Of a DNA stretch of 64,000 nucleotides, positions 23,158-31,762 are shown piece after piece (positions within the stretch are counted from its first letter, which is position 1; each line of letters opens with the position of its first letter). The notes beneath the pieces were generated by a model. The model was not told the DNA's origin, did not search any database, and saw only the letters and a program-made list of their open reading frames with translations. Location of the stretch: positions 620,001 through 684,000 of the forward strand of contig OX596342.1 in assembly GCA_951394405.1 (NCBI GenBank), written 5' to 3'. Source of the DNA: Coprinellus micaceus. Lineage: Eukaryota > Basidiomycota > Agaricomycetes > Agaricales > Psathyrellaceae. Made by a program: the position numbers and the translations under genes.

Positions 23158-24335
23158 ATGACCACCATCACTACCACACAGACCAAAGTCGTGTTCCCGG
23201 CGCCCCCACCGACGACGAACTCGTTGACGAATCAGCAGCGCACTCAGCTGCTGCGAAAGACGAAGAAGCTCGAGCAGCTTCTCGGGGCTGCACCTCATCT
23301 TATCGACCATTCAGGCGCTCTACCGAATGGTGCGTCGACTGATATATATGTCCGCGAATATTCCCGGATTTCTGACTTCGATGACCAGATCCCGTTCATG
23401 TGCCCCTCCCATCCGAACCCAGGAGACGCTCCTCCGTGTCTACAATGACCTCACAAAGATCATTCGACTCCTTCTCCTCCGGATCCGTCGCCTCAACACA
23501 CAGCAGTACATCCCGACTCCTTTCCTCCTCCCTTGAACGGTCGGGCTCAACAGCCTCGCGAAGCTCCCGACGCTCAAGTATGCTCCTAAAGAAAGTCGCA
23601 CCATCTCCCTCACAGTCTCATTCTCCGCCCTCGTACGAAACCTGGTCGGAAACCAAGCCCCCATTCCTCCGGATCGATACCGAGTCGGATGCTGAGAGGT
23701 CGTACTGGACCTCGACAGTTGGGGCTGGAGGATCGAAGCGTTATACCCTCGCCCTGTACACCCGCGATTCAGACTCGGAGGATACCTCGCCATCGTGCCC
23801 CTCATTCAACATCCGATCCGCTAGCAGCTCCCGCAAGACCAAGATGGACCGGCTTCGAAGGAAGCTAGGTCATGGTGTCCCCATCGAGCTAGTGTTCCCC
23901 GGAGCAAAGGACGAGGACGAGCTTGAAGATGACGATGATGAGGAGGAGGAGGAAGAAGTCACTAGCGATGGTTCTTTCGAGCTAGTCACCCCACCAACGA
24001 GCTGCGAGGACCTTCCTGGAGCCCTGGGTCGGAGCCGGAAGGCCACGTCCCCCAAGGGCATCGCTAAGTCTCGCGACTCGCTGTTGATTCATCAAGTGCC
24101 GCGGAAGTCTGCCTCGCCTCCCCCAGCGACCCCTTCGCAGGCTCCTCTTCCCCCAGTACCCGCAGTTCTGGCTGTTTCGAAAGCACCCAAGGGACGCCCC
24201 CTCAGCGCCATACTTGAAGGGACGGACGAGCAAGTGTACTTGGAGACATCCCTCAACGCACGGTTGGGCGAGACCCTCCAGGTCCCTGAGGTCATTCCTT
24301 CCTCCGCTCGGCGGAGATGGAGTCTCAGGACCTAA
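23158..24335 (+). CDS. Conserved hypothetical protein, Ser-rich with acidic stretch
   Basis: Two exons, 23158-23329 and 23389-24335, join as AAT G|AT CCC. The N-terminus contains QQRTQLLRKTKKLEQLLGAA, a basic amphipathic helix that looks like the conserved core. A long Ser/Arg-rich region follows (SSRRSSMLLKK), then PIELVFPGAKDEDELEDD running into about 15 acidic residues, and a Pro/Ser-rich tail ending RRRWSLRT. The RRxS sites suggest phosphorylation by basophilic kinases. No enzymatic domain or membrane segment is seen, and the function is unknown. Confidence 0.7.
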
Positions 24336-25181
24336 TTGGAGTCTGCATTTTATTCGCATCCCTTTCCTTCACGATAATTTTTACGACACTCCACCGTTTT
24401 TCTGCATACCCTTGCATACCCCTTCTCCACTTTGATTCCCTGGTAGGACACATCATTTTGCCCTGAGATTCTCGGATAGGAACTAGAACCATCTTCGCCA
24501 TACGCACATAGATACCTCGCAGCATAATAGTAATTACCTCCATACCATCCAATGAACCAGCTTGGACCTCCGAAATTGCCGGTCTGAACGGGCGGCCCAA
24601 ATACCCCTGGCATCATCCGGTCAAAGCAATTGTCCAATATTTCATCGTCCGTTTTGCGTCCGTTCTTCTGGGGCCTGACTTACCTCTGGCAAACAAGTAT
24701 GACGCTGTATGCCCCACGTAGCACGCGGCGTGTCACGGCGGGCATTGAAATTGGCAGCTTAAGCGCCCGTCCACCTTACTAACGACCAGCCCCGATTAAA
24801 ATGACCATTTGTCCTGAGCCATCAGTGGTCCAAGCAAACTGGGAGCACCCTTTTCCAATCTCCCTATCTCCCGTCTGTCGGCAACGGCGCCTATCTCACC
24901 CAGTGCTCCGGCCGTGGGCCACCCACGAAAATGGGTTGCTATTACATATACCAGGTTGACAGTTTTAGATTCTTCAACCCTACGGCCGCAGTGTAAACAT
25001 GACGAAAAAGGCAGACAGTCGCGTTCCAGGGGCCCTGTCGCACGCAGGATGAATTACCTGAAACGCGATGACGGCGCGCACAATAAGCTCGTTGATATCT
25101 TTAGCCTGGCCGATCTCTCCGTCCGAGTAGCCTGCCAACGGCGTTGTCCTTACTTCTCTGACTTGAACCACCACCACGACG
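24336..25181. other. Intergenic region
   Basis: No supported gene. It carries one copy each of TTAAGCGCCCG (24759-24769) and GGCGCCTATC (24886-24895), only about 120 bp apart. Confidence 0.5.
24759..24769 (+). repeat. TTAAGCGCCCG motif, copy 3
   Basis: Exact 11-mer within a 15-base identity with copy 4. Confidence 0.6.
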
Positions 25182-27041
25182 ATGAAGGACGCGCTCGTGG
25201 CAGATGAAAGGCGAGGCGTGCGGTCAAGGGACACGTTCTGGCTAGCACGACGTGCTGCTGCCGGCGTGGTCATGGCATACGTGGCAGTCATAGCCTTTAT
25301 TATGCTTCCAGCTATCCAGACCTAGTGAGTGGCTTGTCCTTTATCCAGGTGCAGCCAGTCTAATTAGCTCGCCGAAGCACGATCTTTGCGCACCACGTCG
25401 ATGTATGGGGATACTCCAAGTTTGAGCATCCAGAACACTATGGCTTAGCTCGTGAGTGCTGCCGTCCCTAAACGCGACTCGGGCGAGGTCTGACACTCGC
25501 GCAGCTGGAAAAACCGTGAACATGAACCTCACATCGTCCGACAATACGACTATTGGCGCGTGGTTCATCTTCTCTGACTCGTTTTACCGGACCCTCCCTC
25601 ATCCTCACCTCCACACGCACCTCGGCCATGGGACCACGGCCTCACACGAGTCCATCCAGGCCACTTCTCGCACCCACATCCCATCTGCCCTCCAAACGAC
25701 CCCTACCCTCCTTTTCCTCCACGGGAACACAGGAACGCGCGCACACAAGCTGCGCATAGCCATCTACTCGTCGTTGACGGCCCGCCTGGGTGCCAACATC
25801 CTCGCGATCGACTACCGCGGGTTTGGCGACAGCTCAGGGCACCCCACCGTCGAGGGCGTGGGGCGGGACGCGCGGGCGGGGTTCGACTACCTCCTCCAGC
25901 ATGGGGCGAAGCCCAAAGACGTTCTCATTGTGGGCCATAGCTTGGGTACCGCTATTGCCGGGCTTCTTGCCTCTCAGCTTGGGCAAGAGAACCTTGCTTA
26001 CCGGGGACTTGTACTGATGTCGCCGTTCTCCTCCATAAGGACGCTACTGGACCAGTACTACCTCCTAGGCTTCCTGCCATTGTTCAAACCACTCGCCAAA
26101 ATACCGCTGATGCCCCGGTTCATCAGCTGGTCTTTGAAGCATGGATTTGATACCAAGAGGCGTCGCCGATTCAGATCTTGGAAAGGCATGATGGCACGTC
26201 GACCCTGAGTCGGGAATTTCCGAGAAACGGCAGGTGCTCGGCGACAGCAAAAGGCCATCAGTTCAAGTAAGTGCCGCTTGAGGCCAGTGGGGACGTACCG
26301 TGGCTAGTAAGAGCTCGAATGTTTACAGGAGGACAAGAAGGTAGAGATGTACCCAGGGCCTGAGGAGCCAGTGAGGATGAAGGAAAATCGAGAGGTCGTG
26401 CAGTTGCAGGAACGGCGCGAGCTCGATGTTGGCTCGGCGAGGGGGGAGGTTCCGTTCATCAACTCCTGGCGGTAACCAATGCGAATTGTATTTTGGATGG
26501 TTGGTGCGCGTCCCCAGTGGAAGCTGCGTTTAAACGCAAGTGGACGAGCAGTGGGATGACTGCAATGCGGGCGATGACGCGACAAACGTGAGCCGTGGCT
26601 GATCAGCGGCATTCGGTCTTTGCCGTCTTGCTCTGCCTGCCGTTTGCCATCCGGTTTTCCCAATTTGGGGGGGGTCTCAATACCCTCCCCTCCCATCATT
26701 TCTTCCATGATCTGAATCGGTCACGCCTCTTGTTTGATACGCTGAGCCTGGTTCCGGATATCAAGGAGGACGTCCTCATCGCGCACGCTGAGGATGATTG
26801 GGATATTCCACACTCGCATTCAGACGCGCTCTTTGGGGCGTTCCGGGACCTGGGCCTGGCGGCGAAGGATAACTCCACGGTTTCGACGACGCGGGTTACC
26901 GGCTATGGCACCTTCTCGCAGACAAAGGTGGGCAACCGTAACGTCGCGCTGCTCAAGACGGAACGCGGGGGCCATGACCTTGGGAAGGTGGAGGGTGTGC
27001 AGGATACGATTGGGAGGTTGTTTGGGTTGTATAATCCGTAG
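25182..27041 (+). CDS. ABHD12-like alpha/beta hydrolase, interrupted by a 579-bp transposon
   Basis: Serine hydrolase of the ABHD12/BEM46 type. Exons 25182-25324 (N-terminal hydrophobic anchor MAYVAVIAFIMLPAI), 25378-25451 (VWGYSKFEHPEHYGLA) and 25505 onward encode LLFLHGNTGTRAHK, AIDYRGFGDSSGHP and the nucleophile elbow VGHSLGTA. At 26146 the coding sequence reaches GFDT and is broken by a transposon. It resumes in frame after the second target duplication as LSLVPDIKEDVLIAHAEDDW, with Asp in EDDWDIP and His in RGGHDLG. The insertion adds 587 bp (not a multiple of three) and brings a stop at 26206-26208. Unless unusual splicing removes it, the allele makes a protein lacking the Asp and His. 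Joining the flanks with one target copy restores the reading frame, so the insertion is the only visible lesion. Confidence 0.85.
26146..26740. mobile_element. Non-autonomous DNA transposon (hAT-like MITE) with 8-bp target duplication
   Basis: The element spans 26154-26732 (579 bp). The left end CAAGAGGCGTCGCCGATTC matches the reverse complement of the right end CAAGAGGCGTGACCGATTC. Similarity continues to about 40 bp with three substitutions in the first 30. It is flanked by direct copies of TTTGATAC at 26146-26153 and 26733-26740. Long inverted termini plus an 8-bp duplication are typical of hAT-type elements; the superfamily assignment is inferred. No transposase is encoded. The interior carries a coding-like segment with a consensus intron (26267-26328), suggesting captured host sequence. 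Confidence 0.88.
26192..26475 (+). pseudogene. Gene-like cargo inside the transposon
   Basis: A frame open from 26192 (HVDPESGISEKRQVLGDSKR) meets a GTAAGT donor at 26267 and a TTTACAG acceptor ending 26328. It continues in phase as EDKKVEMYPGPEEPVRMKEN to a stop at 26473-26475 (after FINSWR). The 62-nt intron and charged composition look like a real 3' gene end. No family was recognised. A captured host fragment is likely but unproven. Confidence 0.4.
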
Positions 27042-27308
27042 AGTACGGTGTGCGAGAGTGGCATGGTATATATATAGTGCGAACCGGTGACGGTTAATTT
27101 TTGGACATTAGTTGTTGTACCCTACGATACCCTACCATATACCCTCCATATAGTCTGTAGATCTATTTAGCATGGGCCAAGTGTCTGTCATATGATCATT
27201 CTGTCCTCGTCTGCAACAATCGAACGGGAGGGACGAAGCTTCGCCCAAGAGCGTCCGCGTGCCCTCACCGGTAGGGGTGGTTATTGGTAGGCGCTTCGTG
27301 ACCGATCT

Positions 27309-29235
27309 TCATAAGTGCTTCAGCTCGATTTCGTCTGCGAAGGGGCGATGATAGGCGTCGCGTAGGTTCAGTATTAGGCGGGACCCCAAAAGGGGGGAGC
27401 TTAGCGCGGCAAGGTTGATCGTAGGCTGGAGCACTCCCAGCTATGATCAAGGTGTGCGGGTCAGTTGGGTGTGGGCGGCGGAGAGAGGCAGCGGACGCAC
27501 CGGGAGCACATACCACGCAAGAATATTCGACAAACAAATCATAATTCCGCTGCATCAACGGAACGTTGAGAAAACGTTGGGGATAAGTGGTGCAAGAATA
27601 GACGCTTACAGAAATGGGAAAACGACGCTATCCCTCAAGAATATCCTGAGCACACTCCCCTCCGAGAACCTCGAACTCACTCCCTCTACGATTGCCTCTT
27701 CCTCTTTGGTCCTTAGACGGCCGGGATGTTCTTTGAGGTACCGTATACCTTCGGCTACAGCGAGACTGAAGATGGCGAGGTCGAAGGTTAGGATGACGAA
27801 CCACATGGCGGCGGACCAGGATGTCCAACCGAGAGGGATGCAGGTCCGGAGTGTCGGACTGTAGATGGCGGAAACTGATACCAACGAATCAGTATTTCTC
27901 GAAATTGGAGCGAAGTTAAGTGCCCAATGCTCCAAAGCAGAAGAGGGGAATAGACCCTGACTGACCTCCAGTGATCCATATGGTCCAAACGATCCCCAGA
28001 GCAAGGCCGGTGATGAGCAGGGCCCCGAGGCAGACCATCATGGAGACGAAGACGATGCGTTGGCGCCGGCAGAGACTATATATTCTGTGTACCATGATTC
28101 CTGCCATATCGGTTTAATTTTAGCAAGCGAACGGGTTCATGCACGCCTTTTAAGGGTGTTTGTGGGGCAGATGGATATACTTGCCTTGGTATGAAAAGAG
28201 CGAGGTCATGGAGAGCCATGTATTCACGGTTCCAAATGAAGGGCCTAAGGGTGAAGATGTCAGTCAGCCTCGGATTTGAGCGGAAGGTAGGTTGGACCAT
28301 TCCTACATCTGCGAGGGAAGGGGTCGCCTTGGTATGAGAACCGCGACGCTGCAAAGTGCAAGGGATACGCACAGCTACCGCTCTAAGTTAATTCCAAACC
28401 AGCAGACTTCGAGCATCCGCCTCTCACCTCGTTGAACTGGGCTTCCGGCAGCCAGAAAAGGACTACGACAATTGAAGCGGGTTGAGCGATTGGCTGTCTG
28501 GGCGCCTCAGATTGACCCAACTCACAAACGATTCCCCACCTATAGAGCGTACACCATTGTCAGAAACCCCAACGGTTGAAATTGAAGGAAGCTCTGAATG
28601 GGCTCACACAAACACGGCGTCGCCAATATAGCGGTTCTGATAAATGCAGAACACGATGTATATGATGATGTCAGTTCATCGTGCATCGTGCCCCAGCAAA
28701 GGGTCTAGGCCCAGAGGTAATTAAAGAACTGAGCGCACCGTGAAGTAGAGAACCTGCACCAAGGAGACCTTCCTCTTCTGCGTAACAAGCTGAGCGCAGA
28801 TGTTCCTTCAAGACCACTCGAAGGCCTTACCCAAATCAACTCGACCTAGAATGGGGTTGGGACAATAAGCGCCCAAAATCTTGGGACGCGTGACTCGGCA
28901 GACTGACCTCAAGATCGAATGTCGTGACTGGGGAGAGAGGATCAGCCAAGCTTCCGAAGAGTGGGCCTTCGACTCTAGGCAATATTACTCACTATGATCA
29001 TACAAGCAAATCGCGGTGAAAACAACTGCATCGTCATCGTTTAGCAACCGCACCCATTTGACGCCCAGGAAGGAACTCCTCCGACGCGTTTGTGACCACG
29101 CGGAAGGTCGAGGTAAGGCGGGTTTTGAACGATGCACGCACCCTGGGAGTAAAGCCCGTTCCTGACGATCCATGCGAGTTGCTCGTAGCTCAGAGGCGGA
29201 GGATTTGGATCAGTGTAGATGCTCGGCATGCGCAT
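27309..29235 (-). CDS. DUF6533-type seven-TM membrane protein, copy A
   Basis: The first exon encodes MPSIYTDPNPPPLSYEQLAW followed by IVRNGLYSQ. Small exons then give AVVFTAICLYDH, VTTFDLE, VELIW, RKVSLVQVLYFT and NRYIGDAVF, which is the order of the DUF6533 signature (YDH...FDLEV..IW...NRY). Downstream exons are hydrophobic: ASIVVVLFWLPEAQF; IVFVSMMVCLGALLITGLAL; FVILTFDLAIFSLAVAEGIR. The C-terminus ends LILNLRDAYHRPFADEIELK with a stop at 27309-27311. The family is expanded in agaricomycetes and has no established function. Exact splice sites at the 5' end are unresolved. A tandem paralogue lies immediately upstream on the same strand. Confidence 0.65.
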
Positions 29236-29807: not shown

Positions 29808-31762
29808 TTAAGGTGAATGAGGGGGCTCGAACGTCCGTCGAGGAGTCAGAGTGGTCGTTGGGACCGCAACCGCAGGACGGGGAGTAGGGACAGCGTCTGA
29901 CTCTATACTCCGTCGGCAGCTGTTCGACGACGAGAGGAAATCGGCCATCTCCACTACCGCGGGGTCGTCGAGAACCCTCAGCGAGCGTTGGAACTCTTCC
30001 GAAAAGGGGTGGTAGTAGGCGTCCCGGAGGTTTAGGATGAGACGGCATCCGAGAAGAGTTATGGTAACTGACGAGATCGCGGTCGTGTAGGTGCCCGCCT
30101 GGTATCCGTTAGTCTATTAGAAGGAGCGAGGGAGTCCGACTTACGAAAATTAGCTGTGGGACGAGCCACGAAAGGATATTGCTAAATGCAACGATGACGC
30201 TTCTACGGGACAACGGTCAGACGGAACTGCTACAGGGAAATGGGGGTGGAAGGGGACGCACATGAATGGAAATGCGATGCTATCCCTGAGGAGGACGCGG
30301 AAAAGGATACCCTGCTTCGACCAATTTTTCACCGTCAGATAGCGGGAGGAACTTTGCAATGTCAGCTCCTGAGACTCTCGCAGGTACCGCAGACCTTCTT
30401 TTGCCGATAAGATCCAGATGGTAAAATCGAACACCATGGCCATAAACCAGGTGATGACAGACCACCGCGGGATGTCCCAGGCGGCACACACTCGGAGCGT
30501 TGGGACGTAGATGAATGAGTCTGCGTGGGAGGGTAGTAATGATAAGCGATTGTCTTCGGGCAGAACGGAGAATGGGAGGACGAATCGGTGCAAAGAATCC
30601 ACGTACAGGCGATGGCTCTTTGCAAATTCAAAGAGAAGAAGGCTACAACGATTGAGACACAAATAAAGGCCCCTAGGGCAATGCGGAGGTTCCTGTATAC
30701 GTTCTCTTGGTGCCGGTACATGCTGACAACCCGATGGACCATGATAGCTATGGAGCGACAGGACGGACCGAACTGAATACACGGACCGAAAGGACCTGCC
30801 GGGGAGAACGAACCTTGCATTGAGTTCAAAACTATCCCGCCCAGAACGACCTGAACCCTCGTATATGAGGGGCCTGTATACGAAAGTGGAGCATATTGAG
30901 CTTTGAACCATTCCGACACGCGTAAAGTGAATCACGCACATCTGCATCGCATAGGAACCCACGAGGAGTGAGGCCGTAGGGTTCAGGGTAAGAAGGGGGA
31001 GTCGTTACGGTGGAAGTTTACGTACGCCTGGCGTAACCTGAGTATGATGGGGGCATTGAACGAGATAGCAAGAGAACTAACCTCCAGGAAGTTTTCTTCA
31101 GGGATCAGCAGTAGGACTAGGAGGGGATGAGGTGGGCCTCGACAGGGGTTTTAGGTTGGAACTTACCTGCAACGGCATGCCTAGACACGGAACGGTAGTA
31201 AGCAGGAGCTGTCGCAGAAAGGCAACACGCTATCGTGCTTGGGACTCACAAGAACAAAGCGTCACCGGAGTAACGAACCTGTTCGACGACTCAAAACGAG
31301 GTATTTCCGGTAGTTTAAGCGCGCGGACCCACCAAGAAGTAGAGCAGCTGGACGGGCGACTTCTTTTGCCTCTGCGCGGAGAAAATAGTCCGTCAGTTAG
31401 CGTCAACGCGAACCAGACCAGGAAAGCGCACCCATATCAATTCGACCTACGCCCCAATGTTCCTCCAGTGAGACTTATCTCTCCACACGTGTTTTCGAGA
31501 AACCCCACCTCTAAATCAAATGTCGTGACTGGACGAGTGTACTCAATTAATAACCCTGGACAATGGAACTAATGAAAGGCATGTGGACTCACTGTGGTCC
31601 CAGATAACGACTGTAGCTGCTGCGACTATGCACGAAAGAGCCCTTTTAGCCTGCTAAATTTCATGAAAATTGGCGTTAAAAGGACTGACGCTGGAAGTAC
31701 TGGCCCTTTTTCGAGATCCATGCAAGTTCTGCGAACAATACAGGGTCGAATTCGGTGGTCAT
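29808..31762 (-). CDS. DUF6533-type seven-TM membrane protein, copy B
   Basis: The start MTTEFDPVLFAELAW at 31762 aligns with the LAW motif of copy A. Later exons encode KRALSCIVAAATVVIWDH, VTTFDLEV and, near the end, AMVFDFTIWILSAKEGLRYL, FSNILSWLVPQLIF and LILNLRDAYYHPFSEEF. The stop is at 29808-29810 after FEPPHSP. The C-terminal tail is longer than in copy A. The junction of the first two exons is not in phase with any simple GT-AG choice I can find, so this copy may be damaged there or use an intron I have misplaced. Function unknown. Confidence 0.6.

What the first reader, a model, noticed from the sequence alone, without database searches (positions are those of the whole stretch)
26146..26740. 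hAT-like MITE splits the catalytic triad of an ABHD12-type hydrolase
A 579-bp element with about 40-bp terminal inverted repeats and perfect 8-bp target duplications (TTTGATAC) lies between the Ser elbow (GHSLG) and the Asp/His part of the hydrolase. The host reading frame is perfect on both sides if the element and one duplication are removed. The insertion length (587 bp) and an early stop break the frame. This is either a recent knockout allele or a case where the element is spliced out.
Basis: partly seen in the sequence, partly recalled or inferred. Interest (0 to 1): 0.85.

Follow-up and report, generated by a model that had tools for sequence, protein, structure and literature searches.

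The report
Small transposon breaks mushroom lipase gene
A short jumping DNA element that encodes no protein of its own has landed inside the last exon of a lipase-like gene in a Coprinellus-type mushroom and separates the two halves of the enzyme's active site; it is a clean but ordinary gene disruption.

Summary
A 579-bp element (26154-26732) has perfect 8-bp flanking duplications (TTTGATAC) and imperfect terminal inverted repeats of about 43 bp. It belongs to a family: I located 14 copies with both ends in the 50.3-Mb genome (three with a related type of end); 11 of the 13 tested have perfect 8-bp duplications, all different. The host is an ABHD12-type alpha/beta hydrolase gene of a Coprinellus-like agaric. 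Without element and one duplication it reads as 388 aa, 92-97% identical to Coprinellus micaceus. The insertion is in codon 289, between Ser218 and Asp308/His367. As it stands, the frame stops at 26206 (306 aa) without Asp and His. Splicing-out is not supported: exon 3 has no consensus donor before the stop, and exact removal has no GT start. Best reading: a recent loss-of-function insertion allele. Corrections: the superfamily (hAT or Zisupton) is open, since no transposase with these ends was found; and 'MITE' fits only loosely (few copies, not AT-rich). A second ABHD12-like gene (51% identity) exists. Whether the insertion is fixed or polymorphic, and what RNA is made, cannot be tested here. 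A new family of a known kind, of modest interest.

The parts
25182..25324 (+). host hydrolase gene, exon 1 (Met1, N-terminal hydrophobic segment)
   Evidence: tblastn of homologues; donor GTGAGT at 25325
25378..25451 (+). host gene, exon 2
   Evidence: tblastn; introns 25325-25377 and 25452-25504, 53 bp each, GTGAGT..AG
25505..26153 (+). host gene, exon 3 part 1, with GHSLG (Ser218); ends in codon 289
   Evidence: Pfam Abhydrolase_6 and Abhydrolase_1
26146..26153 (.). target site duplication copy 1, TTTGATAC (part of the host exon)
26154..26732 (+). 579-bp non-autonomous DNA transposon, no transposase domain found
   Evidence: no Pfam match in its 134-aa minus-strand ORF
26154..26196 (+). left terminal inverted repeat (43 bp)
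   Evidence: 36 of 43 aligned columns match the right end
26691..26732 (-). right terminal inverted repeat (42 bp)
26206..26208 (+). first in-frame stop (TGA), inside the element; predicted product 306 aa
26733..26740 (.). target site duplication copy 2, TTTGATAC
26741..27041 (+). host gene, exon 3 part 2, with Asp308 and His367; stop TAG at 27039-27041
   Evidence: 97.1% identity over 102 residues to the C. micaceus protein P0001 (stretch begins in the second TSD copy); triad columns

Best explanation
A short non-autonomous cut-and-paste DNA transposon, moved by a transposase supplied elsewhere (hAT or Zisupton type), inserted into the third exon of an ABHD12-type hydrolase gene and duplicated 8 bp of target. 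Shown: the structure, the family, the uninterrupted relatives, the frame break. Inferred: the transcript, if made, keeps the insert, ends translation after 289 native residues plus 17 foreign ones, lacks the catalytic Asp and His, and is probably unstable; the allele is therefore null. The insertion is young on the scale of Coprinellus species divergence, since both gene halves and the splice sites are undamaged. A second ABHD12-like gene may cover part of the function.
For: Ten paired-end copies, 8 of 10 with perfect 8-bp TSDs; two longer relatives of 1710 and 1133 bp, both with perfect 8-bp TSDs; one more copy, split by a later 28.9-kb insertion, again with a perfect 8-bp TSD. 84 of 120 listed homologues run through the site without extra residues. 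Empty-site reading 388 aa, 93.7% identical to C. micaceus P0001 over 317 residues. Ser218 in 120 of 120 listed homologues; Asp308 in 77 of the 78 with a residue in that column and His367 in 77 of 77. No GTRNG[TA] donor in exon 3 before the stop. The upstream flank occurs once in the assembly.
Against: No RNA or protein data. The age is not dated. No transposase with matching ends was found, so the source of movement is unknown. 53 in-frame single-intron combinations exist on paper, all with weaker donors; one of them, GTACTA at 26055 to AG at 26746, would leave a 353-aa product with Ser, Asp and His. Two of the 13 copies tested lack an 8-bp TSD, and at least ten further ends have no partner located.
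Confidence: 0.87

Rival explanations
1. The element acts as a new intron (introner-like) and is removed from the mRNA, so the gene still works.
For: Frame and splice sites elsewhere in the gene are intact. The element holds consensus donors (GTAAGT at 26267, GTAAGA at 26307, GTGGGA at 26551) and an intron-like stretch GTAAGT..ACAG at 26267-26328, 62 bp.
Against: Those donors lie after the in-frame stop at 26206. Exon 3 has no GTRNG[TA] donor before that stop. None of the nine possible start points of an exact 587-bp removal begins with GT. Of the 53 in-frame single introns starting in exon 3, those with donors scored 4 or 5 of 6 are 596 bp or longer, against 53 bp for both native introns. Introns starting in exons 1 or 2, and two-intron routes, were not enumerated.
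Confidence: 0.05
2. The allele makes a shortened or split protein with some non-catalytic role (306-aa N-terminal part, or a separate C-terminal product).
For: The N-terminal frame is open for 306 aa. A GTG-started 148-aa ORF covers 26595-27041.
Against: The N-terminal part lacks Asp308 and His367, conserved in 77 of 78 and 77 of 77 homologues with a residue in those columns. The 148-aa ORF matches no Pfam family on its own. No evidence that either piece is expressed.
Confidence: 0.05
3. The insertion is an assembly artefact.
For: None seen.
Against: Perfect TSD; ten copies at places whose 300-bp flanks show no similarity to one another, with other TSDs.
Confidence: 0.02

Closest known systems
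MarorhAT-4, -11 and -12 of the mushroom Marasmius oreades (non-autonomous hAT elements; PMC9674265, passages)
   Same: Short elements without transposase (the paper gives 597-631 bp; the ten copies here are 521-771 bp) in an agaric, sharing TIRs.
   Different: There a 3,396-bp autonomous partner (MarorhAT-10) was found and movement was seen; here no partner was found and movement is inferred. I had no MarorhAT termini to compare.
Zisupton / Dileera (KDZ) transposons of fungi (PMC12730594, passages)
   Same: 8-bp TSDs; KDZ transposase domains are abundant in this genome (107 matches).
   Different: The 12 KDZ loci held (3.4-3.8 kb each, of 107 matches) showed only two chance-like matches to the TIR; their ends were probably not reached, so membership is neither shown nor excluded.
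hAT families in the same genome (27 PF05699 matches)
   Same: 8-bp TSDs are usual for hAT (PMC12730594 and PMC3942097, passages).
   Different: Pairs of recent hAT copies diverge after 3' ends such as ..GGTTGGAGCYCTA..GTTGGACCCTTA..GCAACACTA and ..GGTGAACACTA, that is TA-type termini, not CAAG..CTTG.
ABHD12-type hydrolases of Agaricales
   Same: Relatives are named 'abhydrolase domain-containing protein 12' or alpha/beta-hydrolase by their sources; the closest is from Coprinellus micaceus.
   Different: Here the gene is interrupted between Ser and Asp/His.

Membership tests
cut-and-paste DNA transposon, non-autonomous | TIRs, fixed-length TSD, several copies at unrelated sites, no transposase | tested here: met
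   14 copies with both ends; 11 of 13 tested have perfect 8-bp TSDs; flanks of ten copies unrelated; no transposase domain in the window copy's ORF or in ORFs beside some unpaired ends
hAT superfamily | 8-bp TSD | tested here: met
   shared with Zisupton, so not diagnostic
hAT superfamily | ends shared with an element encoding a hAT transposase | tested here: inconclusive
   in the 20 of 27 hAT loci held, a scan with up to 6 mismatches gave only chance-like matches, none starting with CAAG; 3' ends of several recent families differ
hAT superfamily | terminal consensus YARNG (recalled, from no call) | tested here: inconclusive
   CAAGG ends fit, CAAGA ends (including this element's) do not at position 5
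Zisupton / KDZ | 8-bp TSD and ends shared with a KDZ-encoding element | tested here: inconclusive
   TSD fits; 12 of 107 KDZ matches held as loci, no convincing TIR; one 9-kb fetch did not show element ends
MITE (features as listed in PMC3942097, passages) | short, TIRs, no coding capacity, in or near genes | tested here: met
   window copy; whether other copies lie in genes was not settled
MITE (features as listed in PMC3942097, passages) | high copy number and AT-rich interior | tested here: not met
   14 paired copies found (a lower bound); G+C of the ten copies 0.51-0.57, like the flanks
ABHD12-type alpha/beta hydrolase | alpha/beta hydrolase signature with Ser, Asp, His | tested here: met
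   Pfam, conserved columns; the ABHD12 name rests on source names; the PDB search gave only distant matches to alpha/beta hydrolase-type chains
introner-like element | splice signals for exact removal from the host transcript | tested here: not met
   no GT at any of nine start points; no consensus donor before the stop; RNA itself not available

The most novel reading that the evidence does not exclude
The insertion is not simply null: a cryptic long intron (for instance 26055-26746) removes the element together with about 35 host residues and leaves a shortened hydrolase with all three catalytic residues, or the element excises so that the gene differs between the nuclei of a dikaryon.
Probability: 0.05. 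Interest if true: 0.5.

Novelty: new member of a known kind. Interest (0 to 1): 0.25.

Why it matters
It is a clean natural disruption in a mushroom lipid-hydrolase gene and gives a ready marker: the uninterrupted form is known from relatives, so strains can be typed. It also defines a small transposon family (CAAGRGG ends with CCGATTCAGATC, 8-bp TSD) in a Coprinellus-like genome. The biology, insertional inactivation by a non-autonomous element, is well known.

Tried and rejected
Autonomous partner: searched hAT (PF05699) and KDZ (PF18758) in the own genome, scanned held loci for the TIR (only chance-like matches in the transposase loci), and scanned 8 ORFs from five loci with unpaired ends: two weak matches (NYN, Ig_NUP210_1st), both below their curated cut-offs. 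Two longer relatives show no obvious transposase frame (those ORFs were not scanned with Pfam). A KDZ copy was fetched to read its ends; no inverted repeat was found and the repeat seemed to reach beyond the 9 kb held.

Splicing: single GT..AG introns starting in exon 3 that restore an open frame were listed (53); none has a full-consensus donor. Two-intron routes were not enumerated.

Insertion preference for genes: of the ten copies, the window copy has the longest spanning stop-free frame at the empty site (332 aa); the others have 77-257 aa and were not tested for coding. PDB search found only distant matches. Rfam at gathering threshold found nothing at 24000-29000.

Rows set aside: ends without a partner (L012, L013, L015, L019; at least ten such ends) were not counted as copies, nor was the C12:2208804-2209531 copy, whose left end is damaged. 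The L012 end was later paired as half of the split C11 copy.

Papers: five searches, listings seen; passages read from PMC12730594, PMC9674265, PMC3942097, PMC4905642 and PMC13412209 (the last not used). No listed title concerned this element family, which is weak evidence of absence.

Full report
What is there. The window lies in a 50.3-Mb, 17-contig genome, contig C9 620001-684000. The best protein match to the host gene is from Coprinellus micaceus, so this is a Coprinellus-like agaric; no call names the species. The element is 26154-26732, 579 bp, with TTTGATAC on both sides. The ends match at 27 of 30 positions without gaps and at 36 of 43 columns with one gap.

It is a family. The element finds 25 matching stretches in the genome (a lower bound), the best near full-length ones at 94%, 83% and 71% identity. 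Pairing ends gave ten copies of 521-771 bp; 8 of 10 have perfect 8-bp duplications, the exceptions being C13:186533 and C13:1368984. A related end type added C5:1842777-1844486 (1710 bp) and C10:1959326-1960458 (1133 bp), both with perfect 8-bp duplications, and C12:2206903-2208803, whose duplication was not tested. A further copy on C11 is cut in two halves about 28.9 kb apart, with its outer 8-bp duplication ATGATGAA intact. In all: 14 copies with both ends, 13 tested, 11 perfect. Ends without partners, at least ten, were left out of this count. The backwards pattern control gave 0 hits against 28. The 300-bp flanks of the ten copies show no similarity to one another. The ten aligned copies keep their ends and differ more inside, as expected if an outside transposase recognises only the ends.

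The host gene. Homologues and splice signals place exons at 25182-25324, 25378-25451, 25505-26153 and, after the insertion, 26741-27041; both introns are 53 bp with GTGAGT donors. With the element and one duplication left out the gene reads as 388 aa without an internal stop. Identity to the C. micaceus protein is 92.2% over 218 residues before the site and 97.1% over 102 after it. Ser218 is present in 120 of 120 listed homologues (the search found 536 and listed 120); Asp308 in 77 of the 78 with a residue in that column; His367 in 77 of 77. The site is inside codon 289. Of the 120 homologues, 84 are complete across the site with no extra residue, 14 are partial, 18 do not reach it, and 4 have 2 to 16 extra residues that do not resemble the element's reading by eye.

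Consequence. With the element in place translation runs through 289 native residues, 17 foreign ones, then TGA at 26206. The product would have the Ser elbow but not Asp or His. No GTRNG[TA] donor lies in exon 3 before that stop; those in the element (26267, 26307, 26551) come after it. Of single introns that start in exon 3 and give an open frame to the native stop, 53 exist, none with a full-consensus donor. A null allele is therefore the likeliest outcome; this is inference without RNA.

Age and redundancy. The upstream flank of the gene has one copy in the assembly, so no empty allele is held. The element keeps its CpGs (observed/expected 0.96), unlike the C1:871663 copy (0.29), where 42 of 46 differences from the C9:1198019 copy are C-to-T or G-to-A, 36 of the 42 at CpG; that copy lies in CpG-poor surroundings (0.31 and 0.38), so the contrast tells more of location than of age. 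A second ABHD12-like gene lies at C7:1441973-1442746 with 51% identity; listed relatives such as Ephemerocybe angulata also have a more distant second protein.

What kind of element. The 8-bp duplication fits hAT, but Zisupton also makes 8-bp duplications (PMC12730594, passages). The genome has at least 27 hAT-domain and 107 KDZ-domain matches. By reading the lists, the nearest listed hAT domain to any located end is about 5.5 kb away (C13:181013 to 186533) and the nearest listed KDZ domain about 10 kb (C11:198127 to 208052). The 20 hAT and 12 KDZ loci held carry only chance-like matches to the ends, and the readable 3' ends of recent hAT families are of another type. So 'hAT-like' is possible, not shown. 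Marasmius oreades offers a close precedent: non-autonomous hAT elements of about 600 bp with TIRs like those of a 3,396-bp autonomous relative (PMC9674265, passages). In Pleurotus ostreatus up to 50% of TE insertions were polymorphic between two strains (PMC4905642, passages), so a polymorphic insertion here would be no surprise.

Verdict. It is a new small family of a known kind in an ordinary role.

Noticed in passing
L049/L050: G000:C11 about 1234102-1263029: A copy of this element family is split by a 28.9-kb stretch whose ends look like a short inverted repeat (TACATCAGGA .. TCCTGATGTA); a large mobile element of unknown kind.
   Followed up: partly
L003: G000:C1 871663-872275: This copy has lost most CpGs (observed/expected 0.29); 36 of 42 C-to-T or G-to-A changes are at CpG, and the flanks are CpG-poor too, as in RIP-like or methylation-driven decay.
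   Followed up: partly
L052: G000:C12 2208790-2208850: Two members with the two related end types sit back to back; the second lacks its first bases at the junction.
   Followed up: no
window 27606-28004 and 30150-30962, minus strand: Two neighbouring minus-strand ORFs share motifs (GIRYLKEHPGRL / GLRYLRESQEL, LRDSVVFPF / LRDSIAFPF), as in a tandem gene family; no Pfam match above its cut-off.
   Followed up: partly
window 26267-26328: The window copy holds an intron-like GTAAGT..ACAG stretch of 62 bp; the 94% sister has 11 bases just before it that are missing here. Function unknown.
   Followed up: no
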